Below, piece after piece: positions 5,488 through 61,799 of a stretch of 64,000 bases of DNA; position 1 is the stretch's first letter, and every line of letters starts with the position of its first letter. The notes under the pieces are model-generated. The model saw nothing but the letters and a program-made list of their open reading frames with translations. It had not been told where the DNA came from and made no database searches. Position numbers and translations under genes: made by a program. The DNA is from Primula veris (lineage: Eukaryota; Streptophyta; Magnoliopsida; Ericales; Primulaceae): positions 28,000,967 through 28,064,966 of the forward strand of contig OY821744.1 of assembly GCA_963682055.1 (NCBI GenBank), read 5' to 3'.

Positions 5488-5496
5488 TAAGTAGAC

Positions 5497-7470: not shown

Positions 7471-7817
7471 CTGAAATGACAATATAAAACCGTTTAGTTT
7501 CTCGCAAGAAAACTAAATTCTTTATCGCAAATACTAATTATAACTTAATTAGATTGCTTCAAAAGAATAAAAACCAGAGAAAGAGATTCTAGCGTGAAAA
7601 TCAAATCACTTTTGATTTCACTAAGAATTCTTTATAGTATTCTAGAATAAAAAGATCAAAACCAATTCGGATTTATTCTATGTGCAAATTTCAATTTCTA
7701 GTAAACTAGCAATGATTTTGCGAGAATAAAAACCGAGACGTCAACAACAATAAAATAAAAATGAAAAGTCCTTTCTTATTTCGAAAATAGAAAACCAAAA
7801 ATGATATTGTTTAAGAT
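7471..7817 (-). other. Copia-A leader between 5' LTR and gag
   Basis: Noncoding AT-rich leader. The bases next to the LTR end (ATCTTAAACAATATC on the minus strand) do not resemble the initiator-Met tRNA priming site TGGTATCAGAG usual in plant copia elements. The primer is therefore unidentified: a tRNA-fragment primer or a mutated site are both possible. Confidence 0.6.
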
Positions 7818-9321
7818 TGTTGGTTTTTGGTACTATTTCGAATACAATAATGAAAGGACAATAAATAAAAGAGACAGGAACGCAAAGGAAATAAACAATT
7901 TTATTTCTCACAATTGGAATATGAATTACAATTCCTGACTCAACAAATAAATAAAACTGCTGGACTGAAATAAAGAAACTGCCGGACTGTTTTAAAGAAA
8001 CTGCCGGACTGGTTTTACAGAAACTGCCGGACTGGTTTTGAACAAAACAAACTGGACTGGTTTTAAAGCATAAAAAACTGCCGGACTGGTTTTTAACAAA
8101 TAAAAAACTGCCGGACTGTTTTTTGTAAATACTGGAAATTACAGAACTGAAAAGTAAATAACAGAATCGAAAGACTGAAAGTAAACAGTACTGAAATGTA
8201 AATACAGAAAAGAAACAGTACAGGAAAGTAAATTACAGAAATGAAACGGTACTGAAAGGAAATGGACAGAAAGTAAAAGACTGAAAAATAAATAACAGAA
8301 AGTAAAAGAAGAGGCAACTGCTGAGCAGTTTCCCTTAAACAATATTTCCCGAACCACCTTTAAAGGTTTCTGGTTTCGGGACTTTGTTCCCAAGGTACAA
8401 CTTCTATCTCAGAGTGGCTCGTATGGAAACCGGCACCGAACCACAGGTCGAGCTGTTGGTGGTGCGGTTCTCTCTCACTAAGTGTATGCTTATGCTGTGA
8501 GTTGTGTGTATGATGGTGTACTGAAATGAGAGGGGGATGGCTGCCTTTTATAGGCTCTACTGAAACCGCAACCATAAATGTTGGTCTTTAATTCTGGGAG
8601 TTACACCCCCAGAATCCGCTCAATCAATTCTGAAACCGCAGCATTTACTCTCATTCATTGCTGACGTTTCTCTTGCTGGAAACTCTAGGGACTCCTTTTG
8701 TATTTTATACAAAACTCCCTATTCGGGTTTGGACCCAAGACCCAAGACCCAAGACCCGAGACATTCCCCAAATCCCAAATCCCAAATCCCAAATCCCAAA
8801 GCCCAAGCCCAAGCCCACGCCCACGCCCACGCCCACGCCCACGCCCACGCCCACGCCCGTGCCCGTGCCCGTGCCCGTGCCCGTGCCCGAGCCCGAGACC
8901 CGAGACCCGAGACCCGAGACCCGAGACACGAGACACGAGCGAGCGCGCGTGTGTGGTACACACTAATACTCTTAGGTGTATGTGGACATGTTAGTTTAAT
9001 AACTACATGGGTTGGTATGGTATATATATTGTAAGATTAACTCTTAATCTTCCAATATGGGATTATACTAAATGGTTTTTCTCATTAACCATTTCGTTTT
9101 TCCAGATTTGAGCTTCCGAGGTACCAACTTTGAAGCCAATTTGTATTCACACCCATTCTCCGAATAGGTCATGTGATATACCGTTACGAAGCTCGTCACA
9201 CGGGATACTCAACCACGTTGATTACGGTATAAACAACTCAGCGCTGTTACACGAAATAATGACTCGAAGTTGGTCCAGTGACCATTCGGAAACACCCATG
9301 TTTTCACATGTTTTTCCAACA
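7818..9321 (-). repeat. Copia-A 5' LTR
   Basis: 1504-bp LTR that would drive minus-strand transcription of the element. The TATA box reads CTATAAAAGG on the minus strand at 8545-8552. The U3 minisatellite at 8731-8955 has fewer CCCAAGA and CCCAAAT units than the other LTR. The termini are TGTTGG and CCAACA, and the outer end abuts AAGGT. Confidence 0.95.
8545..8552 (-). promoter_or_regulatory. TATA box of the Copia-A 5' LTR
   Basis: TATAAAAG on the minus strand, about 770 bp inside the U3 end and directly downstream (in transcription sense) of the minisatellite. Confidence 0.75.
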
Positions 9322-9326
9322 AAGGT

Positions 9327-10259: not shown

Positions 10260-10264
10260 GGAAT

Positions 10265-10969
10265 TGTTGGAAAAACATGTGAAAACATGGGTGTTTCCGA
10301 ATGGTCACTGGACCAACTTCGAGTCATTATTTCGTGTAACAGCGCTGAGTTGTTTATACCGTACTCAACGTGGTTGAGTAGCCCGTGTGACGAGCTTCGT
10401 AACGGTATATCACATGACCTATTCGGAGAATGGGTGTGAATACAAAGTGGCTTCAAAGTTGGTACCTCGGAAGCTCAAATCTGGAAAATCTGGAAAACGA
10501 AATGGTTAATGAGAAAACCATTTAGAATAATCCCATATTGGAAGATTAAGAGTTAATCTTACAATATATATACCATACCAACCCATGTAGTTATAAAACT
10601 AACATGTCCACATACACCTAAGAGTATTAGTGTGTACCACACACGCGCGCTCGCTCGTGTCTCGGGTCTCGGGTCTCGGGTCCAAACCCGAATAGGGAGT
10701 TTTGTATAAATTACAAAAGCAGTCCCTAGAGTTTCCAGCAAGAGAAACACCAGCAATAAATGGAATTGATTGCTGCGGTTTCAGAATTAAAGTGAGCGGA
10801 TTCTGGGGGTGTAACTCCCAGAATTGATGACCTATATTTATGGCTGCGGTTTCAGTAGAGCCTATAAAAGGCAGCCCTCCCCCTCTCATTTGAACACACC
10901 TTAAAACATACAACTCACAGCATAAGCATCATATATAGAGAGAGAACCGCACCACCAACAGCTCGACCT
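10265..10969 (+). repeat. Copia-B 5' LTR, truncated
   Basis: It matches the 3' LTR from its first base to GCTCGACCT and then diverges. The U3 minisatellite is reduced to three TCTCGGG units (about 10658-10681), against about thirty units in the 3' LTR of the same element. The TATA box is retained. Confidence 0.92.
10863..10870 (+). promoter_or_regulatory. TATA box of the Copia-B 5' LTR
   Basis: TATAAAAG in the conserved context GAGCCTATAAAAGGCAGCC, identical to the TATA box of the 3' LTR (15170-15177). It lies about 105 bp upstream of the ATG created at the LTR/pol junction. Confidence 0.75.
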
Positions 10970-10995
10970 ATATTTATGGCTGTGGTTTCCGGGTC
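10965..10995 (+). other. LTR-to-pol recombination junction
   Basis: LTR sequence up to GACCT is followed by a second copy of the LTR segment 10826-10851 (GACCTATATTTATGG onward, one base different), and then by pol sequence. Short shared motifs are present at both joins: GACCT at the first and GGTTTC at the second. This looks like two template switches. Confidence 0.8.
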
Positions 10996-13564
10996 TGTTA
11001 TGGTGAACAAAGGATTTAAACTTGTATTTGAATCTGCTAAAATTGTAATCACCCTTAATGGAATGTATGTAGGCCGTGGCTATATGACCAACGGCATGTT
11101 TAAATTAAATGTTGGTACTCCGGCACCTAAAGCCGAGTCTGCTATTGTGGGTACTAATGCTGAGGCAAGTACCAAGAATAATGTAATCGTTAATGTTGCC
11201 CAAGTGGCCAATAAAACTTCATTTGCTTATTCTTGCGATTCATTTAATTTATGGCATGGTAGATTAGGTCATGTGAATTCTAATTCTATGAAGAAATTAA
11301 TATCACTGAATCTACTACCTAATTTTGTATTTGATAAACAACATAAATGTGAGGTTTGTGTTGAAGCAAAATTAACTAAGTCTTCGTATCAACATATTGA
11401 ACGAAGTACTGAACCTCTCAGTCTAATACACACGGATGTATGCGACTTAAAGTTTATACAAACGCGAGGAGGGAAAAAATATTTCATCACGTTTATAGAT
11501 GATTGTACTAGATACTGCTACGTCTACTTAATGAGAAGTAAAGACGAAGCGGTAGAGAAATTCGCTCTTTATAAGACCGAAGTAGAAAATCAACTCAATA
11601 AAAAGATTAAAATATTGAGGAGTGATAGAGGCGGTGAATACGAGGCACCGTTTGCGCAGATATGCGCAGAAAGTGGCATTGTACATCAAACCACAGCCCC
11701 CTACTCTCCGGAGCAGAATGGGGTTGCCGAGCGTAAGAATAGAACGCTCAAGGAAATGATGAATGCTATGCTAATAAGTTCTGGGTTACCCCAGAACATG
11801 TGGGGGGAAGCGCTGCTTTCCGCCAACTATGTGTTGAACAAGCTACCGCATAAGAAGCGTGATAAACCACCTTATGAACTAAGGAAAGGCCATCGGCCGA
11901 GCTATAAATTCTTAAGGGTTTGGGGTTGTCTAGCAAAGGTCCTTGTCTCGCTTCCTAAAAGAACGAGAATAAGGCCAAAGACGGTAGACTGTGTGTTCAT
12001 AGGATATGCACACAACAGTAGTGCTTATCGTTTTCTCGTGCACAAGTCGGATAATCCCGATGTGCATGTAGATACTATCATCGAAGCTCGAGAAGCTTCT
12101 TTCTTCGAGGAGATCTTTCCCCGCAAGTCTTCCATAACTGTAGAGACTGAGGAGTCAAACAGTGAGGAAAATGTGGGGGCAAGCGAACCGTTGGAGGAAG
12201 AAGAAGAAGAGCCTCGACGTAGTAAGAGGGCAAGAAAGGAAACGTCTTTCGGTCCAGATTTTGTAACCTTCATGATAGAAGGCGAACTGGAGACATTCAA
12301 ACAAGCAATGTCATCCCCGGAAGCCCAATATTGGGAGGAGGCGATCAACAATGAGGTTGAATCAATATTACAAAATCACACTTGGGAACTAGTGGATTTA
12401 CCATCCGGGTGTAAGCCACTAGGACACAAGTGGATCTTCAAGAGGAAGAGAAAGCTCGATGGAACGATCGAGAAATACAAGGCGAGGCTTGTAGTAAAAG
12501 GTTTTAGACAAACCGAAGGTGTCGACTATTTCGACACCTATGCTCCTGTCTCCAGGAAGACGTCAATCCGGATAGTCATTGCTCTCGCAGCACTGTTCGA
12601 TCTGGAAATACATCAAATGGATGTTAAAACGGCGTTCTTGAATGGTGAGTTGGAAGAGGAAATTTACATGGAACAACCGGAAGGGTTTGTGGTTCCAGGT
12701 AAAGCTCACAAAGTGTGTAAACTTGTGAAATCCTTGTATGGACTTAAACAAGCACCTAAACAATGGCACGAAAAATTTGATAGAGTGATGCTATCAAACG
12801 GTTTTCGGATAAACGAATGTGACAAATGCGTCTACGTAAAAGGAAATGAAAAGGACTACGTGGTAGTCTGCCTCTACGTAGATGACATGATTATAATAGG
12901 GAGTATTGATAACATCAACTCCACTAAGAGAATGTTGTCACAAAAGTTCGAGATGAAGGACTTGGGTGTCGCTGATGTAATACTTGGTATGAAAATTACC
13001 AAGACATCAGACGGATATGCGCTATCTCAAACTCACTATGTCAAGCAGATGCTTGACAAATTTGATAAAGATAGTAGAGCTACATCCAGAACTCCGATAG
13101 AGATCTCAACCACCCTGAAAAAGAAATTTGGGGAGAGTGTGAGACAATTGGAATATTCTCGAATAATAGGCAGTCTGATGTACGTCATGAACTGTACTAG
13201 ACCAGACATAGCCAACTCAGTGAGTAGACTGAGTAGGTACACCAGTAATCCCAATGAGGAACACTGGAAGGCCATCATGAGACTTCTCAGATACATGAGA
13301 TACACAGCAGACCGAGGGTTGCATTATACCAGATATCCAGCTGTACTGGAAGGGTATTCTGATGCAAACTGGATCTCGGATTCCAACAGTACACGATCCA
13401 CTAGCGGATATGTGTTCGTGATGGGAGGAGCAGCTGTCTCATGGAGATCATCCAAGCAGACGTGCATAGCTAGATCAACTATGGAATCTGAGTTCATAGC
13501 GTTGGATCTAGCAACAGAAGAGGCTGATTGGCTGAGAAGCTTTCTGGAAGGAATTCCAATGTGA
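10976..13564 (+). CDS. Copia-B integrase-RT-RNase H fusion with LTR-derived start
   Basis: 862 codons. The ATG and the first four or so codons come from the duplicated LTR patch. From [10 protein letters not shown] onward the frame is Copia pol, starting in the region just before the integrase (about Copia-A residue 484). It keeps the HHCC module, the integrase core without the amber codon of Copia-A, RT with YVDD, and most of RNase H. It ends where a conserved Trp codon (IPMWPK in Copia-A) has become TGA, before the last catalytic Asp region (HCDSQSA). Gag and protease are absent. The ORF could be expressed from the nearby LTR TATA box, but function is unknown. Confidence 0.9.
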
Positions 13565-13927
13565 CCGAAACCTGTCCCAGCAATAAGCATGCACTGCGAT
13601 AGTCAGTCGGCTATTGGACGGGCGCAGGATCATATGTATAATGGAAAGTCCCGACATATTCGTCGGAGGCATAAATCCGTAAGAGAATTGTTAGCTAACG
13701 GTGTGGTGTCATTAGATTTTGTGAGATCTAAAGACAATATAGCGGATCCATTTACAAAAGGCTTGACTCAGGTAGGAGTTGAAGTTTCATCGAGGGGAAT
13801 GTGGTTGAAGCCCATCAAACTGGAAACCTCCTCAGAGGCAACCCAACCCGAACTGGATTCTCCAGCCTCGGGTTCAACGGGAAAACCGAACTGTGGGGGT
13901 GACCGAACAAAGCACTCGGGAACTTAA
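13565..13927 (+). pseudogene. Copia-B RNase H C-terminal remainder after the stop
   Basis: Same frame as the preceding ORF, separated by the TGA at 13562-13564. It contains [13 protein letters not shown] and the tail found in Copia-A, ending at the same stop codon. Without read-through it is not translated with the rest of pol. Confidence 0.88.
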
Positions 13928-14405
13928 GTTCCCAGCCCATTTCTAGGATGAAAGAGTGATAGACCTAGACCATCTTAAGGGTGAGCATGAGGCTCTTAAT
14001 GAAAACAAGTATCTCGAAGGTCGAGAGGGTTGAGTCAGGACACCCTTGACTTGAAATCACCTATGACGAGTGTGTATGGCCGATACTATGTGATGAGCCA
14101 TGGGCTAAATCACTAGAGCACTCGGTTGAATTTTGCCAAGGCAGTCCACGGCCAAATATGGACAACAACCAAAGGGCTTAGTAAGTGGTGTAGAGAGGAC
14201 ACTGTGTGCGCATTACCCTGGTATGCACAAACGCTAAAGGGTTCAAGGCTTAAAGGCTACCCAATAGTAGCATATCAGATTTTACGTCACTACGGCAGGT
14301 TCAAGGCGCGCGCTACCTGTCCTTATACAGTGAACTCTTGCGATTTTCTCTCGTATGCATTTAGGAGCATTTTTATTTTCAGCCAATTGCATTCATGTGG
14401 GGGAT
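13928..14405 (+). other. Copia-B 3' untranslated region and polypurine tract
   Basis: Noncoding and nearly identical to 2625-3090 of Copia-A. It ends with the polypurine tract ATGTGGGGGAT at 14395-14405, directly before the 3' LTR. Confidence 0.8.
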
Positions 14406-16020
14406 TGTTCGAAAAACATGTGAAAACATGGGTGTTTCTGAATGGTCACTGGACCAACTTCGAGTCATTATTTCGTGTAACAGCGCTGAGTTGTTTATAC
14501 TGTACTCAACGTGGTTGAGTAGCCCGTGTGACGAGCTTCGTAACGGTATATCACATGACCTATTCGGAGAATGGGTGTGAATACAAAGTGGCTTCAAAGT
14601 TGGTACCTCGGAAGCTCAAATCTGGAAAATCTGGAAAACGAAATGGTTAATGAGAAAACCATTTAGAATAATCCCATATTGGAAGATTAAGAGTTAATCT
14701 TACAATATATATACCATACCAACCCATGTAGTTATTAAACTAACATGTCCACATACACCTAAGAGTATTAGTGTGTACCACACACGCGCGCTCGCTCGTG
14801 TCTCGTGTCTCGGGTCTCGGGCTCGGGCACGGGCGTGGGCGTGGGCGTGGGCGTGGGCGTGGGCGTGGGCGTGGGCTTGGGCTTGGGCTTGGGCTTGGGC
14901 TTGGGATTTGGGATTTGGGGAATGTCTCGGGTCTCGGGTCTCGGGTCTCGGGTCTCGGGTCTTGGGTCTTGGGTCTTGGGTCTTGGGTCCAAACCCGAAT
15001 AGGGAGTTTTGTATAAATTACAAAAGCAGTCCCTAGAGTTTCCAGCAAGAGAAACGCCAGCAATAAATGGAATTGATTGCTGCGGTTTCAGAATTAAAGT
15101 GAGAGGATTCTGGGGGTGTAGCTCCCAGAATTGATGACCTATATTTATGGCTGCGGTTTCAGTAGAGCCTATAAAAGGCAGCCCTCCCCCTCTCATTTGA
15201 ACACACCTTAAAACACACAACTCACAGCATAAGCATCATATAGAGAGAGAGAACCGCACCACCAACAGCTCGACCTGTGGTTCGGTGCCGGTTTCCATAC
15301 GAGCCACTCTGAGATAGAAGTTGTACCTTGGGAACAAAGTCCCGAAACCAGAAACCTTTAAAGGTGGTTCGGGAAATATTGTTTAAGGGAAACTGCTCAG
15401 CAGTTGCCTCTTCTTTTACTTTCTGTTATTTATTTTTCAGTCATTTACTTTCCGTCCATTTCATTTCAGTACCGTTTCATTTCTGTAATTTACTTTTCTG
15501 TACTGTTTCTTTTCTGTATTTACATTTCAGTACTGTTTACTTTCAGTCTTTCGATTCTGTTATTTACTTTTCAGTTCTGTAATTTCCAGTATTTACAAAA
15601 AACAGTCCGGCAGTTTTTTATTTGCTTAAAACCAGTCCGGCAGTTTTTTATTTGTTTAAAACCAGTCCAACAGTTTTGTTTAAAACCAGTCCGGCAGTTT
15701 GTTAAAACCAGTCCGGCAGTTTTGTTTAAAACCAGTCCGGCAGTTTGTTTAAAACCAGTCCGGCAGTTTGTTAAAACCAGTCCGGCAGTTTCTGTAAAAC
15801 CAGTCCGGCAGTTTCTTTGTTAAACCAGTCCGGCAGTTTCTTTATAACAGTCCGGCAGTTTCTTTATTACAGTCCAGCAGTTTTATTTATTTGTTGAGTC
15901 AGGAATTGTAATTCATATTCCAATTGTGAGAAATAAAACTGTTTATTTCCATTGCGTTCCTGTCTTCTTTATTTTATTGTCTTTTCATTTATTGTATTCG
16001 AAATAGTACCAAAACCAACA
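14406..16020 (+). repeat. Copia-B 3' LTR
   Basis: 1615-bp complete LTR. It starts TGTTCG (one change from TGTTGG) and ends CCAACA. The U3 minisatellite is at 14786-14990, the TATA box at 15170-15177, and the U5 block of CAGTCCGGCAG repeats at 15600-15880 has about ten exact cores, twice as many as Copia-A. Confidence 0.94.
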
Positions 16021-17470: not shown

Positions 17471-17475
17471 CAGCT

Positions 17476-18003
17476 TGATAAAACCATAACTTTTGGCGGT
17501 GGCGTTAGGTTTTTCAACGATATAATATTGAATATATAATAAACGATGAACACTGCTTGATCTTTATTGCTATTCGGCAATTGCCCTTGTTCGGATTACA
17601 ATTTCCTTTTTACAATCATGCTCGACTTTAACTATTTAATCTCTCATCTTAGTCTTTCTCCTTCTTCTTCGGTACTCGGCTCTTTCTCTGCTCGGTTTGT
17701 TTCTTGATGTGATAAGTTTTGACTAATTTCTCTCTTTTCTCTACTTCTCTCTATATTTTTTGGATAGATTTTCTGGTCTCTTTCTTGGGGGGATACTTGG
17801 CTATTTATAGGCTATTATGTCTCCTAGGATGTTGACAAATGTCTTCATCTCATGGGTTTTATCAGATATGGGTCCCTAGTTAAGTGGGCTTGGGCTTTTT
17901 GTAAAGGAGGTGATAACCCATTAAGCGTTGGATACCCAGTTATAATATATGGGCTGATTAAGACCCGAATAGAATATTTGGGTCTAATTTTTATGTTCTA
18001 TCA
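17476..18003 (-). repeat. Tat-1 3' LTR
   Basis: 528 bp, TGATAAAACC to TTCTATCA. A minus-strand TATA box CTATAAATAG lies at 17801-17810. It is the only complete LTR of the element, and its last 136 bp match the stub at 27408-27543. Confidence 0.92.
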
Positions 18004-18020
18004 AGTGCTCCCTGACTTCC
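18004..18020 (-). other. Tat-1 polypurine tract
   Basis: On the minus strand this reads GGAAGTCAGGGAGCACT directly before the TGATAG start of the 3' LTR. The core CAGGGAGC recurs in the tract of Tat-2. Confidence 0.7.
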
Positions 18021-18241
18021 TCGGTGTGGTTTCCACGTCGAGGGAGTCATGATTGGTCTGTCGAAGAGATTACTTCGGTTTAGCTGTTCCCTATGTTTCA
18101 TTCGGCAAATGCCCCTAATTATAAATGCTTCTTGGGACCCATTTACTATCTTGGGAACTCGCAAATTTGCTATTTGACTTTGATAAGACCCTTGGTATCT
18201 TTCTTCAAAGCAACCCTTGACCTTTCTAAAAACCACCTTAT

Positions 18242-18250
18242 TATAAAAAG
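18242..18250 (+). promoter_or_regulatory. TATA box of antisense gene A
   Basis: TATAAAAAG, 61 bp before the ATG at 18303. Confidence 0.55.
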
Positions 18251-18302
18251 GGAATACCCTTCCCACAATTACTTATTCCATCACCACCTTGCTTGTGACT
18301 TA

Positions 18303-18572
18303 ATGGCTTCTCCCAATGGTTCTACTGGAGACAATTCTTCAGATTATGTCGTTTACTTGGAGAATGAAGTCAAGAAGGCTCGCGTTATGAAAAAGAAATT
18401 GGCGGACGTGACAAAAAGGCTATCTGATATGGACGCAGCTCATCACTTGACGATGGCTGACCTTGATTGGGCCTTTGAACGTATAAAGAGGCTCGAGGCT
18501 TCTCTGGCTAAGCAAAAGGCAGCAAAAAGGGCCTATAAGCTTGCTTTTAAGGAGTTGCATGCTCGATCTTAA
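18303..18572 (+). CDS. Antisense small gene A, coiled-coil protein
   Basis: 89 codons on the strand opposite to pol. The start is set at the MASPNGS methionine because gene B begins with the same MASP...GDN...YV(V/A) pattern and both have a TATA box about 60 bp upstream. The longer open frame to 18093 has no such support. The product is a charged helix with heptad-like spacing: a YLENEV segment, then KRLEASLAKQK and KRAYKLAFKELHARS at the end. I do not recognise a named family. It is paralogous to gene B, with ELEAS/RLEAS and KRAYKLA(L/F)KE conserved in position. An AATAAA-like signal lies at 18682-18689. Confidence 0.7.
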   Translation: MASPNGSTGDNSSDYVVYLENEVKKARVMKKKLADVTKRLSDMDAAHHLTMADLDWAFERIKRLEASLAKQKAAKRAYKLAFKELHARS

Positions 18573-18847
18573 CCGAGTTCGGATGACGATGAAGGAGGCT
18601 CTTCCTCGGAATAATTAGTCGTTTATGATTTCTTTTGTATTGGATATTATCTCCAAGTTGTAACTGAACTATTGAAAATATTAATAAAATATTTCTTTAT
18701 TATCGCTCTTGTCTGTTTATCTTCTTGGTACCTTATTGGATGCCTTAATTGGATTTGAACTGTTGTAGTTAACCATAAATGCTCTTGGGAAGCTCAAGAG
18801 GTTGTCTTTCTTCGAGATGACCTTTGATCTACCCCATTGTTTCTTCC

Positions 18848-18857
18848 TATAAAAAAG
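18848..18857 (+). promoter_or_regulatory. TATA box of antisense gene B
   Basis: TATAAAAAAG, 57 bp before the ATG at 18905. Confidence 0.55.
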
Positions 18858-18904
18858 GACTGTCCCTATTTTCTTTGTGCAACTCCTTCTTTATTAACGA
18901 ACAA

Positions 18905-19240
18905 ATGGCTTCTCCTCGTGAAAATAGTGGTGACAACCTTCCTGAATATGTTGCCCATCTCGAGGAGGAGGTTAGGAGGACTCGTATCTTCGAAAGGAGG
19001 GCTGCCTCTTTAACCGTGGAGGCTCGCCGAGCTGCTGAGATGGATGAGCGCTTGGAGGCAATGGAGAGTGAATATCAGAGGTCTCTGATCGACACTATTT
19101 GGGCTCGTGCTCGGATCAAAGAGTTGGAGGCTTCTAGAGAGAGGCATATTGCTTCCAAGAGGGCTTATAAATTGGCCCTCAAGGAAGTGTATGCTCGGTC
19201 CAAGAAGAGGACCGAGGATGAAGCTGGTCCTACAAAATAA
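18905..19240 (+). CDS. Antisense small gene B, coiled-coil protein paralogous to A
   Basis: 111 codons, starting MASPRENSGDNLPEYV in register with gene A. It is strongly charged and predicted helical: HLEEEVRRTR, an Ala/Arg/Glu-rich middle, then RIKELEASRERH and KRAYKLALKEVYARS, with a short extra KKRTEDEAGPTK tail. The match to gene A over its full length argues for tandem gene duplication and for real coding. An AATAAA signal follows at 19292-19297. No function can be read from the sequence; an oligomeric structural or nucleic-acid-associated role is only a guess. Confidence 0.72.
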   Translation: MASPRENSGDNLPEYVAHLEEEVRRTRIFERRAASLTVEARRAAEMDERLEAMESEYQRSLIDTIWARARIKELEASRERHIASKRAYKLALKEVYARSKKRTEDEAGPTK

Positions 19241-19589
19241 CTCTCTTTTCCTTTATTTTTTGTAATGTAATTTTGTCGAGTAGCATCTTGTAATAAATTT
19301 CCCCTTGATTAATGGAAAATTTTCTTTTTCTTGCTTTTATCTGAATTATTCTCCCAATGCAATTAATTTGACTGCGCACGCTTGTGGATTCATTAATGCT
19401 TTTTCTTGGGTCTTGCGTTTGACCTTATCCATTGAACCTTCTGAATCTTTGTATCTAGGGACTGAGGGGATTTCTCGAGCCCTGTGCACAAATCTTATCC
19501 TTTATATCTTAATATTGTTGCACTTTTTCCAGATTGACACGTGCAGAGGCTTTTCGAATTTTACCCTCTTTAAATACTGGCATGAATCC

Positions 19590-19735
19590 AAGCGTTTCTT
19601 CTCAACAGACGCCTCTTTTTATAATGAATGGTTGCAACTCCCCACTTTTAATTTCTCAACAGGCGCATCTTTTAATTACCCTCGTTTTCCCAAATCTCTT
19701 GGCGAACGGTTGCACTTCCCCACACTAATCCTTCC
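19590..19735 (+). repeat. Imperfect direct repeat upstream of gene C
   Basis: The motif series TCTCAACAG(A/G)CGC(C/A)TC ... GGTTGCA(A/C)(C/T)TCCCCA occurs twice in a row just before the TATA box of gene C. It may be a duplicated promoter element. Confidence 0.5.
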
Positions 19736-19745
19736 TTAATTTCTC

Positions 19746-19753
19746 TATAAATA
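19746..19753 (+). promoter_or_regulatory. TATA box of antisense gene C
   Basis: CTATAAATAC context, 92 bp before the ATG at 19838. Confidence 0.6.
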
Positions 19754-19837
19754 CCTACTTAAGATATGGATTTCTTCACAACCTCCCCCTTATCTCTCTT
19801 CATTATATACAGAATTTTGTCTTACAACTTCCTAAAA

Positions 19838-20131
19838 ATGGAAGATTCTTCAACCAAATCTGCATTGGTCTTGCAAGTGGAGGCTTTTGAAGAATCATAT
19901 GGCCATGCACTAAAGCTGTTGAAGGATGCTGAGGAGGAATTAAAGGTGATGCGTTATCACCATACCGAGATGGTTCGGGAATTGACTTGGCTAAGATCCA
20001 AGCTGGATTATTGTCGACATGCTCGTCGGGCTCTAGTCGAAGAGAATGAGGTGTTGAGGGGGAACCCGACACTTCGAGACAGGGATGTCTCTGCCGGGCC
20101 CTCTCATCGATACCGATTGACTTCCCCCTAG
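19838..20131 (+). CDS. Antisense small gene C, coiled-coil protein
   Basis: 97 codons starting MEDSSTKSALVLQVEAF. Most of the chain is a charged amphipathic helix (ESYGHALKLLKDAEEELK, then RELTWLRSKLDYCRHARRALVEENEVL). It ends in a short basic/Ser tail. It has the same general design as genes A and B but I cannot align it with them by eye. It sits on the plus strand of Tat-1, opposite to pol, with its own TATA box. The 0.8 kb behind it is T/C-rich and noncoding. Confidence 0.62.
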   Translation: MEDSSTKSALVLQVEAFEESYGHALKLLKDAEEELKVMRYHHTEMVRELTWLRSKLDYCRHARRALVEENEVLRGNPTLRDRDVSAGPSHRYRLTSP

Positions 20132-20649
20132 CCTCGCCTTTTTTCTCTCTTTTTATTTTTTTTCAGTTTCCTTCATTTCTTCCTCTTCCTCTTCTTGCAC
20201 TTTCTTTTTTCCTTTTTCTCTTCTTCTGCACCACTACGATGTAACAATCAACCCTGTGATCCTAAGGGTTTTGTGTTACTTCTAGGGTTTTTGTCATTTT
20301 TCATTTTCCTCTTCTTGCTTTTCACTTCTTTTTTATGTTCCTCTTCATTCTCTTCTTCCTCTTCCCCATCGCCTCCTTCCTTCATGCATCCTGTTCGATG
20401 GGTTTGCCGACATAGTTGATCTTCTGTAATAGAATTTTCTTTTGATGTTATTCTCGGATGTAATAGACCTCGATGTAATAGATTTTCTTTCGATGTAGTC
20501 TCCTGATGTAATAATTTTTCCCTTTGATGTCCTCTAATGTAATGAACAGTGATGTATCTCAGCCTTATTAATGAAAATTTCCTTTGCCCCTTCATATTGC
20601 ACTTCTTTTTATATTGCACTTGTGGTTTGTCGTTTTTCTGGACTGTGGA

Positions 20650-20840
20650 CCTTTGAATGTCTTCTCTTTTTATTTCTTGCTGTATTTATTGTTGTACGGT
20701 AATATCATATGTCTGTAGACCTTTGAATGTCTTCTCTTTTTATAGGTGCCTGCTCCTAGGCACATGTCAGATAATATGCATGTTCCCAAGCACCTTGTCA
20801 GATTATATGCATGTTTCCAAGCACTTGTCAGAAAATATCA
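20650..20840 (+). repeat. Short tandem repeats upstream of gene D
   Basis: CCTTTGAATGTCTTCTCTTT occurs at 20650 and again at 20720. Then a unit of about 31 bp built on CAC(A/T)TGTCAGATAATATGCATG is present three times (20759-20840), ending 15 bp before the TATA box of gene D. Confidence 0.65.
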
Positions 20841-20854
20841 CACTATCTTTTCTC

Positions 20855-20862
20855 TATAAATA
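20855..20862 (+). promoter_or_regulatory. TATA box of antisense gene D
   Basis: CTCTATAAATACTCC context, 108 bp before the ATG at 20963. Confidence 0.6.
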
Positions 20863-20962
20863 CTCCTCTTCTTTTCTTTAGTAGTTACCCTCTTTCATCA
20901 ACTCTTATTGTTTGCTTTTCCCTCATCCCCTATCTTATCCTGCACTAAAACAATTTCCCAGA

Positions 20963-21442
20963 ATGTCTGAACCTGTGGTGAGATATCATGCTCAGATGAA
21001 GGGCTTGGATACTGAGGTATCTCGGGTCCGTCATCGAATGGCGAGGCTTGAGAAGGAGTATGGTGTTTTGGCCTTGAGTTTGTTCAGCTCTCATCCCGAA
21101 GAGACAGTGAAGTGGACCGAGATTTCGGCCTTGAGTCGCCAGCTCGATCATTTGTTGTTACAGAGAAATCATCTGGCCAACTCCTGGTATGATGCCGAGG
21201 AGATTTGGGACCATGCTCAGAATGAGTTTGATAACTCTCCTCAAGGCCTCGCTAGTATGACTGTTAAAAATGCTCGGCTTAAAGAACAAGTTACTGCCCT
21301 TATCGGCGAGAATGCATACCTTGCCCGGGAGAATGAATGCTTGGTTGTCATGAACGATTCATATGAAGCTTGGTTGAACTGCTCTGCTCGTTTTGCTTTC
21401 TCTCGGTCTGGCAGTTCGGTTTTTCCACCCATTGATCCTTAG
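20963..21442 (+). CDS. Antisense small gene D, coiled-coil protein
   Basis: 159 codons, the longest of the small frames. It starts MSEPVVRYHAQMKGLDTE and has three helical stretches: about residues 12-35 (RVRHRMARLEKEY), 50-85 (ISALSRQLDHLLLQRNHL) and 105-140 (NARLKEQVTALIGENAYL). The C-terminus is Ser/Pro-rich. I recognise no family. It has a TATA box and a repeat-bearing upstream region of its own. Confidence 0.65.
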   Translation: MSEPVVRYHAQMKGLDTEVSRVRHRMARLEKEYGVLALSLFSSHPEETVKWTEISALSRQLDHLLLQRNHLANSWYDAEEIWDHAQNEFDNSPQGLASMTVKNARLKEQVTALIGENAYLARENECLVVMNDSYEAWLNCSARFAFSRSGSSVFPPIDP

Positions 21443-21586
21443 TTAGGCTGGGCTGGTTTTATGATGTATTTCCCGTTTTGGAACTTGTATTTTATTTTGT
21501 ATTTGAATCAGATGTATCTTTTCGTATCTCGTGCCTTTGTCTTATGAACCGTTGCAATGCCTCGTTCTTCGTGCCCTTTGAATCTT

Positions 21587-21594
21587 TATAAATG
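21587..21594 (+). promoter_or_regulatory. TATA box of antisense frame E
   Basis: TATAAATG, 80 bp before the ATG at 21667. Confidence 0.5.
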
Positions 21595-21666
21595 CTCCCT
21601 ATTGTCTGTATTTCATTACCAATTCTTCCTTTCTCTCTCTTGTTTTATAATTTGCTTTTGTTTGAG

Positions 21667-21762
21667 ATGGCTCCCATCACTAGATCTGCCTCAAAAAAGA
21701 AAGCGTTTACTTGTCGAAAACAGCAGCGGTTGTGGACTTTTCTATGGTTGGAAAAAAGGTAA
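21667..21762 (+). CDS. Antisense frame E, short basic peptide or first exon
   Basis: 31 codons starting MAPITRSASKKKAF, strongly basic. The stop codon overlaps a good splice donor (AG then GTAAAC at 21759), so this may be a 5' exon of the large gene that follows rather than an independent gene. I could not find an acceptor that keeps the reading frame. Confidence 0.35.
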   Translation: MAPITRSASKKKAFTCRKQQRLWTFLWLEKR

Positions 21763-22270
21763 ACCTCTGTCACACGAAAGGACGGTTATTATTTTATTCT
21801 TTCTGTGGCTCCACTCCTTTTAACTGTGCTAAGTAATCCCTTTAGTTTTTTACCTCATAATTTGCTGAAGAAAAATATCTCTTATCTTCTCTCTCTAGGG
21901 TTTGTTCTTCCCGCCAAAAATTTGCTGCCTCTCTATCTAGGGTTTGTCGTGACGGTTGAGAGATTTACTGCTATTCTCCCTCGCTTGCTCGTGATCATGA
22001 CTGTAAGTATCTTCGTATTTTGTGGTTTGTTTGTTTGGATACTTCTGTGATTAGGATTCGTATTTGATTTGTGGTTGTGGTCATATTTGGTCTTAGTTGT
22101 CTATATTTGTCTATCTAGGTTGTTGAGTAGTGGTTTTTCTTCCTGTATAGGATATTTGTTGGGTTGATGGAAAACTTTTTAGGGTTTCGAACAATTGGGG
22201 GGGGCGGGATTTGTCGTGTCATGTGTTTTGGGGTTAGTATTTTGATGGATTTGTGATGATGTTTGGATAG

Positions 22271-25200
22271 GAAATTTTGACCCAATGTCTGGCCTAAGTT
22301 GGCACATTTGTGGAAAAGGACTTTAAGAGGCTCGCCGGAATACCGGATAACATACACATTCGGCTGCCTGTCTCTGATGAGGAGGTTTTGGGATATGTCC
22401 CTGCCGGCGAGGTAGCTGTGCGTTCCTCGGCCTTCTTCACTGGGGGTCTTAGACTTCCGTTTACGGAGTGGGTGGCTTCGTTCTTTGAGGCCGTCCAGAT
22501 AGCTCCGGCCCAACTCGCTCTGAATGGTTACCGAACCTTGATCGGTATTCAAAGGTTGTCGGAAGTATCGGGGATAGATATTGAACTGAAAGATGTCTTC
22601 GGGGTCTATAGTTTGAGTTTCGAGCGCCGCAGTTCGTATTTGAAGCGCATTCTCCCGGCTGGTAATTGGGTTGCCGGACACCAACAAAGAACATAACCTT
22701 GGTGTTGTGATTGCGTCCGGGGAATGGGGCTGTGAAGGACACCATATCCCTGGACCTGTGACCACAGCTCCTGCTATTCCAGACCTCGGCGCTCCCAATG
22801 TTGAGGCGCTCTTAGTGCTTTGGAAATGGTGGGGGCCTGGGCCTACCAAGGATCCGGCAAGCCGTTCTGCTCCCCTGCTACTTGGTTACCCTGCGGGGCC
22901 AGTGACCAAGGGGAATCCTGCGCCCGAGATCCCTAAAGAGCCCGAGGAGGAATTCGTAAAAGTTGTTAGGGCTCGAAGTGCTGCTCGGGGAGGGAAAAAG
23001 CCCACTCGTTCTAAGCGCCGAAAATCGGACCCCGCTGTTGGCACCCCGAAGAGGGCTAGAGGGGTTGAGACCTCAGGTAATGTGGAGGTTGCGGATGTTG
23101 GCAGGGGTGTAGAGGTGGTCGCATCGTCCCAAGGTGATACCACCGAGGAGGCTGTTGCGAATCTCGATGTAAGTGTATTTGTTTTTGTTAATAGTTGCCT
23201 TTTGACTCTGTTGTTCCCTGCTTTATATGCTATCTTGTTTCAGTTATTGACTTCTTCATTGGTTACCCTTACTCTTGCCCGGTCTATGGGTATTATGGTG
23301 TTTCAGGGGTCGTTCGACAACATATTCGAACATATGAACCTCCTGGTGAGCATGGGCGAGGATACGATGACCCTGCCTGTCGTCTCGTCTGCCCGTATTG
23401 AGGATCCGATAGATCTGCCTGTTGGCTCGCCCATCCGTACTGAGGAGGTGACCGAGCATGGGGACCCTAAGACCGGTCCTTCGGAGAAGGAGGTGAGGGA
23501 GGAAGTGGAGGTGGAAGCCGGCAAAGAGACTACCATGGGAGTTGTGGTGGGTGTCGAGGATGAGGTTCTCGAGGGACCTGAAAAGGTGTTGGTGGACGGG
23601 GTGGCAATGACCCGTTATATTGATCGGTGTAGGGGTGAACTGTTGGAGCAACCCCGAGTCTTGAGGATGGGGTATACTGCTCTTAAGCCCCTCGTTGTCA
23701 AGGATGCAGAGAAGATAGCTGCTCGTCCTGCAATGTCGGTTATAGAGCAGGCCAGTACTGACGCGCTTCGGGTATGTTGCGCACGTTTTTTTTTTTTTTT
23801 AAGTCGTGATGCTCTTGTTTTGGCTGGTGTCTTATGTCTCTAAATACAGGTCTTCGTGGATATCGTGGTGTTAAGGGATCAGCTGTCGGCACTAGAGTCT
23901 GAGAAGGAGAAGCTGATGGCCGAAAATAAAGCTTTGGCCGAGGATAAAGCTCAGCAAGTGAAGTTGGTCTCCGAGCTAGAGGCGGAGAAAGAGAAGCTGA
24001 CGGCCGAAAATAAAGCCTTGGCCGAGGATAAAGTTCAGCAAGCGAAGTTGGTCTCCGAGCTAGAGGCGGAGAAAGAGAAGCTGATGGTCGAAAGCAAAAT
24101 AACGGCCGAGGAGAAAGCCCAGATGGCTAAATTGGCCACTGATAATGAGAAGTTGGTAGGAGATAACTTACGCCTGACCGAGGAAGTGGAGAAGATGGGG
24201 GCCGAAAAAGAGGAGTGGGTCGAGAAATATGACCTACTGGAGGCCGATAACTTGCTCATGGCGGAGGATGTGGAGGCCGGAACATCTGAGGTTGCTGCTC
24301 TGAAGGCAGGGCAGGCAGACGAACGGAAAAAGTTTGCAATGATGGCTAATTTTTCCGTCTTTTGCGCTCATGTCCGAGCTCTAAACTTTGCACAAAGGTG
24401 CCATTCTCGGACCGGGCGTGGTCGGAGTTGGTTTATCCCTGTCCGCAAGGTGCACCTCCTAAGCCTCAGGATTGGGCCAACCTCCGAGACGAGGAGCTCC
24501 CACGGATGCCGGGACATACTATTTCGACGGCGCTCCGTCCCCATTCCGGGTCGGCTCCAACGACCCCTCGATCTGCTATTGCCGTGATTCCCCCACCCGC
24601 ATCCCCTCAGGTAGAGCCTTGACCATTTACTTGTAATATTTTCTCTGTATCTTAGCGTAAAGTCTTTTGTTACCCGAATTATGGGTCTCTTTTGTAACTA
24701 GAAAGATATTCTTTTGGGAAGTGATAATATAGGTGCTATGTTTTCTTTCTGTTTGGCTTTCCTTGTTAATTCCCCTGTTTGTGGGTCGTCGTCTTTTGAA
24801 GGATGTAAAAACATCTTGTCAGGTACCCGCCAATCCCCTTGCCATGGTGGGCTGGACCTCGCCTAGTCGTAGCGTAGGCGATGTTATAAACGGTCTTGAA
24901 AAAGCTAACGCGTCCCTAACCTCTGAACTGAATTCTGCTCGGCGCGAAATCGATGGTTTGAATATTCATATTTCAAATTTGTCAATTCGATTACGTGACT
25001 TGGGAGAGAGGTTCAGTAAGAAGACCGCATACTATACGACAAATAAGGGAAAGGCTAAAGAGCTTCTTGGTGCGCTTCGGCGCTCTCGTGATGAAGCCCG
25101 AGGCCGGGTGACGAGCTTGAACTTGGTTCTAGGGGCCGTTTTCGAAGACGCGGACCTGTTGCTATCCTTTGCCAGAGCGTATTGGGCCCGAAGTCGTGCA

Positions 25201-25416
25201 TTAGAGGTGCTCGATCATGTAAAAGGGATGCGTGGTGTTGCCCGGGCAGAGCGTATGGGTGCCGCTATGGCCGGGGTAACTGAGACCACGGCTGCCTTGA
25301 ACCAAGTAGATGCGGTCGTACAGGAACGTTTGGGGACTCAAATTGTCTCATTGCGAAATATCCATTTCGCTGACGCCGTAGAGACCTCAGCGTCTGTTGA
25401 TGGGTTATCAGATTGA
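22271..25416 (+). pseudogene. Tat-1 large antisense gene (Transposase_28-like, coiled coil), decayed
   Basis: A spliced plus-strand gene. Proposed exons are 22271-23168, 23307-23771, 23850-24610 and 24823-25416, all with GT-AG introns in phase 0. A six-base first exon ATGACT at 21997-22002 before GTAAGT is possible. The first exon holds a domain resembling Pfam Transposase_28 (FFTGGLRLPFTEW, then a helical region and DTNKEHN...GEWG). The second and third are acidic and then a long Lys/Glu/Ala coiled coil built on a repeated EKEKL(M/T)AENKALAEDK unit. The last exon is another coiled coil. Lesions: an in-frame TAA at 22295-22297, a +1 frameshift near 22660, and a frameshift between about 24360 and 24420. 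Without these the product would be about 900 residues, similar to the Tat-2 gene. Confidence 0.72.
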
Positions 25417-25605
25417 TGATCGTGTAGCTTGTTTTGTCATTGTATATGTAGCTTGTATATAAAAAATCTTCATTCTTCTACTTTCGTGTCTTTTCTTTTC
25501 TTTGTTCGATAAGATATCCCTGTCTCTTCTATATTTGAGGCTGAATATTCATCTCGTCCTTTCTTCCCCATTTTTTTTTGTTTTTTGTTTTAGGCACATG
25601 CTACT

Positions 25606-26118
25606 ATGTCACACCAGGCCGGTTCTCCATGCCTAGTTAGTCCGGGGCTAGGACCTACTGGTGTTGCCCGGGACGAGGTCTCATTTGGTGCGGCTAGTGA
25701 AGGGCATGCCAAGTGGCCTTACATCATTTTAATGGGCAAAAACGTCAAGTTGGTCGATCAGTGCGCCCGACTTAGGGCCAAGTTGAAAATCCAGGCGTCC
25801 TCTTTTCGCGAATATGTTCGTCGTGCCGAGCATGTTGTTGAGGTTCAGGAGCGTCGTTTAGATCGGTATTGGCGTGTAAAGGAAAAATACCCCGGTAAAC
25901 TAAAGTCGCTGGTAACCCAAGCCAATATTTTGGTGAAGTATTTCCGCCTGTCTCGATCCAGATTCGATGCTTCTGCGGCTACGATCGAAGCTCATAAGCT
26001 TCCCTTCGACGATGCTCGCCGTAAAGCGGCCTCGGATGTTTACGGTAAACTAAAGTCGCTGGTAACCCAAGCCAATATTTTGCTGATCTCTTCGTTTGGT
26101 ACTTTATTGCCTCCGTAG
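25606..26118 (+). CDS. Antisense frame F, possible further coiled-coil gene
   Basis: 170 codons starting MSHQAGSPCL, preceded by TTTTAG and by TATATAAAA at 25456-25464. It could be a sixth small gene or a downstream exon of the large gene. The middle is helical and charged (VDQCARLRAKLKIQ, VVEVQERRLDRYWRVKEKY). A 40-bp segment is duplicated in frame (25893-25932 and 26043-26082), so the block YGKLKSLVTQANIL appears twice and the second copy leads directly to an unrelated C-terminus. No family recognised. Confidence 0.5.
   Translation: MSHQAGSPCLVSPGLGPTGVARDEVSFGAASEGHAKWPYIILMGKNVKLVDQCARLRAKLKIQASSFREYVRRAEHVVEVQERRLDRYWRVKEKYPGKLKSLVTQANILVKYFRLSRSRFDASAATIEAHKLPFDDARRKAASDVYGKLKSLVTQANILLISSFGTLLPP
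25893..26082 (+). repeat. 40-bp direct repeat inside frame F
   Basis: CGGTAAACTAAAGTCGCTGG and the 20 bases after it recur exactly at 26043-26082, 150 bp downstream, which is a whole number of codons. Confidence 0.9.
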
Positions 26119-26179
26119 TACGGGCCATAACTCTTTCTCAATTTTGTTTGATGCATATTAGCCTCTTTGCTTGGCCTTA

Positions 26180-26213
26180 CCCCCCCCCCCCCCCCCCCCC
26201 TTTTTTTTTTTTT
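26180..26213. repeat. Homopolymer pair C21-T13
   Basis: Twenty-one C followed by thirteen T. The length is likely unstable or uncertain in sequencing. Confidence 0.95.
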
Positions 26214-26239
26214 ATATACCTGCATATGTTTGAGGTCTT

Positions 26240-26403
26240 GATTATTCCTAGGCCTACCCTTAGGCATGCCGTTTGGGAATTTCATAGTATTCCTAGGCAC
26301 AAGGGCCGTTTGGGAATTTCATAGTATTCCTAGGCACAAGGGCCGTTTGGGAATTTCATAGTATTCCTAGGCCTACCCTTAGGCATGCCGTTTGGGAATT
26401 TCA
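26240..26403 (-). repeat. 37-bp tandem repeat in the Tat-1 pol/antisense convergence zone
   Basis: The unit GCCGTTTGGGAATTTCATAG plus 17 bases ending in CAAGG starts at 26268, 26305 and 26342, and a 45-bp variant leads to 26387. It lies between the end of the antisense genes and the end of pol, the 3' untranslated zone of the element, where Tat elements are known to carry tandem repeats. Confidence 0.88.
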
Positions 26404-26508
26404 GCTGCACTCGTTAGACAGCATGATAAAATGTTTTATTTACCCAAAAGACAATGTCATTAAGCAGGAGGGGTAAGGTGGCACCTGTATTTGTACTGAT
26501 GAGATGAT

Positions 26509-27405
26509 CTATATGTAGTACTTCTTTAGGTTAGCCACATTCCAGGAATTCTTCTCCCCTCTGCTGTTTTCGAACAGAACGCTTTTGAGTTTGTAGGTAA
26601 CCGGGCTTGTTCTCTTGACGATCTAGTATGGTCCCTCCCAGGTGGGGCTTAATTTGCCATGTATTTCATTGCGGGTATAGACCGTTACTCGTCGCAGCAC
26701 CAATTCTCCGACCATAAACTCTTTGGTCCCTTTCACCCTCTTGTCATACGTTTGCTTAACGCCTTGTTGATACTTCGCTAGTGTAAGAGCTGCTATCTCT
26801 CGTTTCTCGTCTAGCATGTTGAGTTCCTCCCTCATTCTTTGTTCATTGTTTCCTTGCTCGACTAAAGTTGTTCGTAGTGTGGGTAGCCCGATTTCCGTTG
26901 GTATGACGGCCTCGACGCCGTATGCTAAGCTGAACGGGGTTTCCTTGGTGCCCGTCTTTGGTGTAGTTCGGCACGACCATAAGACGTTGAGCAGCCGCTC
27001 GGGCCATCTCCCCTTCGCTTGTTCGAGGGTTGTCTTGATGCCATCTAGGACGGTTCGGTTTGATACCTCTGCTTGTCCGTTTCCCTGTGGGTATGTTGGC
27101 GTCGAATAGAACTTTCGGATACCGAGTTCTTCGTACCAAAGCTGCAAGTTGGCTTCTTTGAACTGGGTGCCATTGTCTGCGACGATGGCGTACGGTATAC
27201 CGAACCTTGTGATGATGTGCTCCCAGATGAACTGTTTGACATTACTGGCTTTAATTTCACGGAGAGGTTTAGCCTCAACCCATTTGGTGAAGTAGTCCGT
27301 CGCCACGATCAGATATTCGACGTTGCCGGGTGCTTGAGGAAGCTTCCCGACTATATCAATCGCCCATTGTGCGAATGGCCATGGTGCCGATACCGGGGTC
27401 ATCAT
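26509..27405 (-). pseudogene. Tat-1 integrase remnant
   Basis: The frame opens exactly at the junction with the LTR stub. The HHCC zinc finger is gone. The catalytic core is present: AIDIVG (first Asp), VADNGTQF (second Asp) and NGQAEVSN (Glu). It continues to the C-terminal module with SPTWEGPY. There a TAG (26623-26625) interrupts the GPY/F motif, after which the same frame runs 37 more codons to TAG at 26509-26511, ending in NVANLKKYY. The enzyme could not be functional because the N-terminus and all other pol domains are deleted. Confidence 0.9.
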
Positions 27406-27407
27406 AA

Positions 27408-27543
27408 ATGGGTCCCTAGTTAAGTGGGCTTGGGCTTTTTGTAAAGGAGGTGATAACCCATTAAGCGTTGGATACCCAGTTATTATATATGGGCTGATTA
27501 AGACCCGAATAAAATATTTGGGTCTAATTTTTATGTTCTATCA
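27408..27543 (-). repeat. Tat-1 5' LTR stub
   Basis: The first 136 bp of the LTR in minus orientation (TGATAGAACAT...), two mismatches from 17868-18003. It is fused directly to integrase sequence at 27405-27407. The outer edge abuts the CAGCT target duplication. Confidence 0.93.
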
Positions 27544-27548
27544 CAGCT

Positions 27549-61738: not shown

Positions 61739-61780
61739 GTTTCTTTTAAGGACGGGGAGTCGAAGCTAACGCGTTCAGTT

Positions 61781-61797: not shown

Positions 61798-61799
61798 AT

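What the first reader, a model, noticed from the sequence alone, without database searches (positions are those of the whole stretch)
18242..21762. Tandem array of five small TATA-equipped reading frames on the antisense strand of a Tat retrotransposon
Seen: five plus-strand ORFs (18303, 18905, 19838, 20963, 21667) inside Tat-1, whose pol reads on the minus strand. Each has a TATA box (TATAAAAAG, TATAAAAAAG, TATAAATA, TATAAATA, TATAAATG) 57-108 bp before its ATG. A and B are clearly paralogous from the first Met to the KRAYKLA(L/F)KE end; A-D are all mainly helical. Established: Tat elements (Grande, Ogre and relatives) often carry one antisense ORF between pol and the 3' LTR. Inference: this lineage multiplied small helical genes there, perhaps as structural partners of gag or of the large antisense protein, or as host-interaction factors. 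I know of no published equivalent but could not search.
Basis: partly seen in the sequence, partly recalled or inferred. Interest (0 to 1): 0.9.

Follow-up and report, generated by a model that had tools for sequence, protein, structure and literature searches.

The report
Antisense mini-gene cassette in plant retrotransposon
A family of jumping genes, probably in a plant, carries on the strand opposite its normal genes a row of five small protein genes with promoter-like sites, and selection appears to have kept these proteins intact across the copies compared, so they probably help the element, although their job is unknown.

Summary
Observation largely confirmed, then corrected. The window holds an internally deleted, Retand/Tat-like Ty3/gypsy element (17476-27543, TSD CAGCT) whose pol reads on the minus strand. 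Between integrase and 3' LTR the plus strand carries ORFs A, B, C, D, each behind a TATA box. The own genome holds at least 150 scored places (a cap) for each. A-D lie in the same order in 17 of 20 fetched copies. Pooled dN/dS is A 0.34, B 0.22, C 0.25, D 0.28-0.30, against 0.56-1.13 in five noncoding controls. TATA boxes are kept within variable leaders. Homologues of A-D exist elsewhere. The fifth ORF is not a gene here: siblings carry a 122-aa gene E (dN/dS 0.20), of which a deletion of about 780 bp left only promoter and start. A is cut 14 codons short. Only A and B are demonstrable paralogues. A large TRP28-like gene (F) follows, broken here and in the two siblings read. Antisense TRP28 genes in Retand are published; a cassette of small antisense genes was not seen in nine literature searches. 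Most likely accessory genes; expression and function are untested.

The parts
17476..18003 (-). 3' LTR (528 bp, TG..CA), with 5-bp target-site duplication CAGCT at 17471-17475
   Evidence: sequence reading; LTR of over 450 bp beside the array in 24 of 29 sibling loci
18242..18250 (+). TATA box of gene A
   Evidence: TATAAAAAG in 16 of 18 aligned copies (window included), TATAAAAG in 2
18303..18572 (+). gene A, 89 aa here; cut 14 codons short of the 103-aa sibling form
   Evidence: dN/dS 0.34; orthologue P0002 72%
18848..18857 (+). TATA box of gene B
   Evidence: 18 of 18 aligned copies begin TATAAAA
18905..19240 (+). gene B, 111 aa, paralogue of A
   Evidence: dN/dS 0.22; orthologue P0001 74%
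19746..19753 (+). TATA box of gene C
   Evidence: identical in 18 of 18 aligned copies
19838..20131 (+). gene C, 97 aa
   Evidence: dN/dS 0.25; homologue P0005 81%
20855..20862 (+). TATA box of gene D
   Evidence: identical in 18 of 18 aligned copies
20963..21442 (+). gene D, 159 aa, predicted as three long helices
   Evidence: dN/dS 0.30, 0.28; homologues P0003 85%, P0004 81%; AlphaFold2 mean pLDDT 73
21587..21594 (+). TATA box of gene E
   Evidence: TATAAATG in 16 of 18 aligned copies, TATAAATT in 1, lost in 1; TATAAA at the expected place in 11 of 12 loci (two of the 12 are places already fetched)
21667..21762 (+). remnant of gene E: about its first 12-13 codons, then a deletion of about 780 bp (junction at 21702-21704, 3 shared bases) and other sequence; 122 aa in siblings
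   Evidence: sibling E dN/dS 0.20
21997..22002 (+). predicted first coding exon of large gene F, before a GTAAGT donor; predicted acceptor ends at 22270
   Evidence: exact donor string in 13 of 20 sibling stretches, some of which may end before it; splicing is inferred
22271..26118 (+). rest of large antisense gene F: weak TRP28 match within 22298-22696; coiled-coil-like exons about 23850-24610, 24823-25416, 25594-26118 (borders inferred); stop at 22295-22297 and frame breaks in this copy
   Evidence: PF04195 E 0.0064, below Pfam's cut-off; selection on F not tested
26623..27400 (-). 3' end of pol: integrase core
   Evidence: PF00665 1.4e-10
27401..27543 (-). remnant of 5' LTR (143 bp, 4 differences from the 3' LTR), joined to integrase; rest of that LTR, gag and most of pol are missing; TSD CAGCT at 27544-27548

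Best explanation
The stretch is the antisense accessory region of a Retand/Tat-like Ty3/gypsy retrotransposon family. Reading away from the 3' LTR, sibling copies carry five separate small genes (A, B, C, D, E) and then a predicted large, intron-containing TRP28-like gene (F), opposite to gag-pol. SHOWN: the small frames are conserved in many copies at fixed order and are constrained as proteins on this strand; their TATA boxes are retained while the leaders around them vary. INFERRED: each small gene is transcribed by Pol II from its own TATA box on integrated DNA and makes a small helical protein; the proteins act in trans as accessory factors, perhaps with the TRP28 protein in the nucleus (transcription, anti-silencing, or nuclear entry of the integration complex). 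INFERRED reason for antisense placement: genes with their own introns and ends can sit in the element without splicing or cutting short the genomic RNA. The window copy is a decayed, non-autonomous member.
For: At least 150 scored places (cap of the tool) each for A, B, C, D and E in the own genome, from 2668, 2674, 1468, 1437 and 1411 first-look candidates, A and B partly matching each other. A-D in the same order in 17 of 20 fetched copies; LTR of over 450 bp ending 874-904 bp before B in 24 of 29 loci. dN/dS 0.34, 0.22, 0.25, 0.30, 0.21 for A-E (D 0.28 and E 0.20 with more copies), 0.80-1.49 in shifted frames, 0.56-1.13 over three frames of five noncoding controls. TATA boxes retained. A and B each have their own orthologue in other data, so the pair is old and both are kept. 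P0002 (A) and P0005 (C) both list a longest contig of 5397 bp, suggesting linkage elsewhere. A sibling piece carries RT, RNase H and integrase in Ty3/gypsy order on the opposite strand.
Against: No transcript evidence could be obtained. AATAAA is not enriched on the gene strand (2 plus, 8 minus in 18004-22000; 2-4 plus against 4-9 minus in 18 siblings), so separate 3' ends are unproven. Some 3' spacers are as little diverged as the ORFs (A-B spacer 0.025, A 0.042). One antisense frame per gene also gave a low ratio (0.26-0.55). A small frame in the C-D spacer gave 0.45 and 0.50 in two of its frames, from 6 copies. A's bootstrap interval is wide (0.25-0.78). All copies used were found through similarity to B, the ten added through E. 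Heptad periodicity is weak: shuffles reach it in 49, 130, 16, 46 and 71 of 300 for A-E. D's fold matches nothing with E of 0.001 or less. F is broken in the window and in both siblings read. No step of the mechanism has direct evidence.
Confidence: 0.7

Rival explanations
1. The five small frames are exons or pieces of one long spliced antisense transcript rather than separate genes.
For: The neighbouring gene F is predicted to be spliced. AATAAA signals are few on this strand.
Against: C's similarity to its homologue is high from its ATG on and low before it; intact siblings share lengths, hence stops, for B, D and E almost throughout; each frame has its own retained TATA box.
Confidence: 0.1
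2. The antisense RNA itself is the functional product (double-stranded RNA or interference with the genomic RNA) and the frames are incidental.
For: Antisense retrotransposon RNA can act this way (discussed in PMC7264820). TATA boxes are conserved.
Against: Constraint on amino acids in one of three plus frames: dN/dS 0.20-0.34 against 0.80-1.49 in shifted frames.
Confidence: 0.05
3. The small genes are host genes captured by the element (transduction).
For: A-E match no retrotransposon domain in Pfam.
Against: No Pfam family above its cut-off for A-E; best sub-threshold hits are KxDL for A (E 0.00051) and YabA for D (E 0.00076). Database homologues are five unnamed proteins, with longest contigs of 5.4 kb or less. 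Host proteomes could not be searched as such.
Confidence: 0.08
4. Chance open frames, still open only because the copies are young.
For: The window's LTR pieces differ at only 4 of 143 sites.
Against: Control stretches have stops in every copy in the frame tested and dN/dS 0.56-1.13. Homologues at 72-85% identity keep the frames.
Confidence: 0.04

Closest known systems
Retand-lineage Ty3/gypsy elements with antisense TRP28 ORFs (Vicient 2025, PMC11963269; parts 1-3 of 5 of the text and passages read)
   Same: Antisense coding between pol and 3' LTR; a TRP28-like domain (weak here); LTR length (528 bp against 315-1,194 bp); 5-bp TSD. More than one antisense ORF per element is already in print: 104 of 600 bp or more in 63 clusters.
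   Different: Five small antisense genes, each behind a TATA box. The pol-3' LTR stretch is about 8.6 kb here against 2,933-6,566 bp. That survey counted ORFs of 600 bp or more (or shorter ones with TRP28), so genes of 89-159 codons would have been passed over.
Grande gene23 of maize (as described in PMC7264820, parts 1-2 of 3 read; the original paper was not read)
   Same: Antisense gene between pol and 3' LTR with a promoter of its own.
   Different: A single gene is described. Nuclear location and transcription are reported there and are untested here.
Antisense accessory genes of complex retroviruses (HBZ, APH-2; as discussed in PMC11963269)
   Same: Works-like comparison only: extra proteins from the strand opposite gag-pol.
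   Different: No sequence relation tested or claimed; here there are several small genes side by side.

Membership tests
Ty3/gypsy LTR retrotransposon | RT and RNase H before integrase in pol | tested here: met
   Sibling piece L053: RT, RNase H, integrase domains on the strand opposite A-E. The window copy itself keeps integrase only.
Retand lineage | RT phylogeny groups with Retand | not tested
   No tree was built; no reference RT set was at hand.
Retand lineage | Long pol-3' LTR region with antisense ORFs | tested here: met
   About 8.6 kb with plus-strand genes against minus-strand pol.
Retand lineage | TRP28 (PF04195) domain in an antisense ORF | tested here: inconclusive
   PF04195 at E 0.0064, 17.1 bits, below the curated 26.2 bits.
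Retand lineage | 5-bp TSD and TG..CA LTRs | tested here: met
   CAGCT on both sides; LTR 17476-18003. Shared with other plant LTR elements, so not diagnostic.
Grande gene23 type accessory gene | Antisense, own promoter, transcribed | tested here: inconclusive
   Antisense position and conserved TATA met; transcription could not be tested.
Grande gene23 type accessory gene | Nuclear protein | not testable with these tools
   E begins with a basic, NLS-like stretch (motif judged from recall; sequence).
Coiled-coil proteins | Long helices with heptad repeat | tested here: inconclusive
   D modelled as three helices; heptad signal weak; A, B, C, E not modelled.

The most novel reading that the evidence does not exclude
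A plant LTR retrotransposon lineage has evolved an accessory gene set comparable in number to that of complex retroviruses: five separately promoted small helical-protein genes plus a spliced TRP28 gene, all antisense, whose proteins work together in the nucleus to control expression or integration of the element.
Probability: 0.25. Interest if true: 0.75.

Novelty: new variant of a known kind. Interest (0 to 1): 0.62.

Why it matters
The antisense genes of Tat/Retand elements have no known function. Five small, separately conserved genes beside the TRP28-like gene give several tractable proteins for finding it, and suggest that ORF-length cut-offs hide part of the coding capacity of plant retrotransposons. 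It also offers a testable reason for antisense placement: genes with introns and ends can be carried without damaging the genomic RNA.

Tried and rejected
Relatives in other collections: three scans of viral contigs (A/B, D, C) and one of genome contigs (D) gave no confirmed relative. Solved structures: best E 0.099 for D and 0.41 for A/B, so none. Fold search of D: 515 matches at E up to 10, none at 0.001 or below. E as first exon of F: rejected, because siblings show a full E gene and the one sibling looked at has no ATG-led frame at that place. My idea that recombination between two similar starts made the deletion (note) was dropped: the junction shares only 3 bases. An 85-aa ORF between E and F gave dN/dS 0.53 (other frames 1.17 and 0.75; 26 copies) and is left undecided; a 74-aa frame in the C-D spacer gave 1.00 in frame and 0.45 and 0.50 in the other frames, from 6 copies. 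Strand-specific AATAAA enrichment was not found. One search handled 15 minus-strand loci in the wrong orientation and is replaced for LTR and spacing; its splice-donor search covered both strands. In some searches the minus-strand loci among L022-L030 (five) were not turned and so dropped out; one search includes them. In one search the C profile held one 182-aa member and is poor. A structure of B was never obtained. The integrase search of the genome did not complete. Selection on F was not tested.

Nine paper searches were answered; in the titles and abstract beginnings listed (20 of 39 papers) I saw no plant retrotransposon with a row of small antisense genes. The library holds open-licence papers only, so this is not proof of absence. 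Steinbauerova 2011 and Gomez-Orte 2013 were not read (cited in PMC7264820). PMC12786077, PMC6696364 and PMC11728184 were seen as passages only; the last mentions ORF3/4 of Retand-2 and multiple aORFs of Tat/Athila elements in Arabidopsis.
Full report
What is there. The window contains an LTR element from 17476 to 27543, flanked by the target-site duplication CAGCT at 17471-17475 and 27544-27548. Its pol reads on the minus strand: the integrase core matches PF00665 at 1.4e-10. The 3' LTR is 528 bp. The 5' LTR survives as 143 bp joined directly to integrase, with 4 differences in 143 from the 3' LTR. Gag, protease, RT and RNase H are missing between them in this copy. A sibling piece has RT, RNase H and integrase in Ty3/gypsy order on the same strand as this integrase.

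The five frames. Four ORFs of 89 aa or more on the plus strand compare with a mean of 0.41 and a maximum of 3 in 400 dinucleotide shuffles; 10.6% of positions in the region have such a TATA at 51-115 bp.

Copies in the genome. Searches with A, B, C, D and sibling E each filled the limit of 150 scored matches, from 2668, 2674, 1468, 1437 and 1411 candidates of the first look; A and B partly find each other. Stops inside the matched stretch were noted, by my count of the rows, for 6 of 150 A, 13 of 150 B, 10 of 150 C and 23 of 150 D matches; these lists favour intact copies. In 20 fetched 5.2-kb stretches A, B, C and D all occur in the same order in 17; L041 lacks A, L044 lacks C and D, L049 lacks D. 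Among the 17, D is matched only in part in L039 and L047. In 29 loci an LTR of over 450 bp stands beside the array in 24, is partial in 4 and absent in 1; A is present in 27 of 29 and C in 28 of 29. These loci were the best matches to B, not a random sample.

The fifth gene. In siblings the frame that begins at 21667 is a 122-aa gene, E. The window copy lacks about 780 bp that L036 has, with 3 bases shared at the junction, so its 31-aa ORF is a remnant joined to other sequence. In 12 loci brought in by E, D lies 606-727 bp before E in 12 of 12, and TATAAA stands at the expected place in 11 of 12; two of these loci (L054, L056) are places fetched before.

Selection. Pooled pairwise Nei-Gojobori dN/dS over 28, 30, 29, 18 and 16 copies gave A 0.34 (bootstrap 0.25-0.78), B 0.22 (0.15-0.32), C 0.25 (0.22-0.28), D 0.30 (0.26-0.34), E 0.21 (0.17-0.25); the two shifted frames gave 0.80-1.49. 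With ten more places D is 0.28 (28 copies) and E 0.20 (26 copies). Five noncoding controls (three spacers, 29 copies each; the leader region, 24; the LTR, 8) gave 0.56-1.13 over three frames; a small frame in the C-D spacer gave 1.00, 0.45 and 0.50 from 6 copies, so low values can arise by chance in small samples. In one search one antisense frame per gene also gave low values (0.26-0.55); this is expected where third codon positions of the two strands face each other. For A, B, D and E every antisense frame of the reference copy contains stops; for C one antisense frame is open. All copies came through similarity to B, which can lower B's value; the ten added came through E. Pairs are pooled without a tree, so intervals are only indicative.

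Promoters. Across 18 aligned copies (the window and 17 siblings) the TATA boxes of C and D are identical in 18 of 18; A is TATAAAAAG in 16 and TATAAAAG in 2; 18 of 18 B begin TATAAAA; E is TATAAATG in 16, TATAAATT in 1 and lost in 1. The TATA-to-ATG leaders have pairwise diversity 0.064-0.171, against 0.018-0.118 in ORFs A-D; spacers after the ORFs range from 0.025 to 0.140, so low divergence is not confined to coding parts. The TATA 7-mers rank 7 of 115, 25 of 111, 10 of 146, 9 of 162 and 15 of 134 by identity among their surroundings; combined by hand with Fisher's method this is about p = 0.007, approximate because windows overlap.

Relatives elsewhere. In 5.8 billion proteins A/B gave 2 hits out of 98 candidates, D 2 of 27, C 1 of 2. 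P0002 is nearest to A (72%) and P0001 to B (74%), although A and B are 46-47% alike: the A/B duplication is older than the split from those sources. P0002 and P0005 both list a longest contig of 5397 bp, which suggests but does not prove that A and C are linked there. The source organisms are unknown.

The large gene F. After E comes a predicted gene whose first coding exon is ATGACT before a GTAAGT donor (21997-22002), then an exon from 22271. The exact donor string occurs in 13 of 20 sibling stretches. The next part matches TRP28 weakly (E 0.0064, below Pfam's cut-off), followed by coiled-coil-like exons to about 26118; exon borders are my reading. The window copy has a stop near the start of F, absent from the sibling stretches that show this exon, and further frame breaks. 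The two siblings read further (L051, L052) also have broken frames, so I did not see an intact F, and I did not test selection on it.

Other element in the window. A second element at about 51575-62494 has LTRs 99.3% alike over 695 columns, a minus-strand gag-pol frame of 1555 aa, antisense frames of its own at 52761-55491, and a 77-bp tandem repeat between them and pol, but only about 500 bp between its LTR and its antisense frames, where no frame of 150 aa or more was listed. The array is thus not common to all such elements here.

Structure. D is predicted as three long helices (3-39, 45-91, 93-148) at mean pLDDT 73 from 3 sequences. Solved-structure and fold searches give no significant match. 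Heptad periodicity is weak. 'Coiled coil' is therefore a reasonable guess, not a result.

How it may work. The part shown is coding constraint on several small antisense genes with retained TATA boxes. The rest is inference: separate Pol II transcription from integrated DNA, small helical accessory proteins, perhaps acting with the TRP28 protein. Antisense placement would let the element carry genes with introns and their own ends without harming the genomic RNA; the lack of AATAAA enrichment on the gene strand does not help this idea.

Comparison with print. Vicient 2025 (PMC11963269, parts 1-3 of 5 and passages) reports antisense ORFs in all Retand clusters analysed and TRP28 in 97%, a pol-3' LTR of 2,933-6,566 bp, 104 antisense ORFs in 63 clusters, and a 600-bp ORF cut-off. 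Vicient and Casacuberta 2020 (PMC7264820, parts 1-2 of 3) describe Grande gene23 as antisense, transcribed from its own promoter and nuclear. In nine searches I saw no listing of a cassette of small antisense genes. I rate it a new variant of a known kind.

Noticed in passing
window 51575-62494: Second Ty3/gypsy element with LTRs 99.3% alike, one 1555-aa gag-pol frame on minus, antisense frames at 52761-55491 without a Pfam hit above cut-off, and a 77-bp tandem repeat (55740-56199) between them and pol.
   Followed up: partly
window 1058-9322 and 10260-15974: A copia-type element on minus (Pfam) and a second stretch in opposite orientation, 98% complementary over 3.4 kb, forming a large inverted repeat.
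   Followed up: no
L031:4283-4540 and equivalents: An 85-aa frame between E and F, shared by siblings, dN/dS 0.53: undecided between a further small gene and noncoding; lost in the window copy.
   Followed up: partly
window 18303-21442 and siblings: Synonymous divergence among copies rises from A/B (0.05-0.09) to D/E (0.22-0.24), which may reflect recombination between subfamilies or the choice of copies by similarity to B.
   Followed up: no
window 26181-26403: Homopolymer runs and short tandem repeats between gene F and pol, matching siblings in several overlapping ways.
   Followed up: no
window 40420-40627: Repeated motif around AAAACGACCGATCGTTTT, in direct copies.
   Followed up: no
window 30462-31772: Family of roughly 60-bp AT-rich repeats in two clusters.
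   Followed up: no
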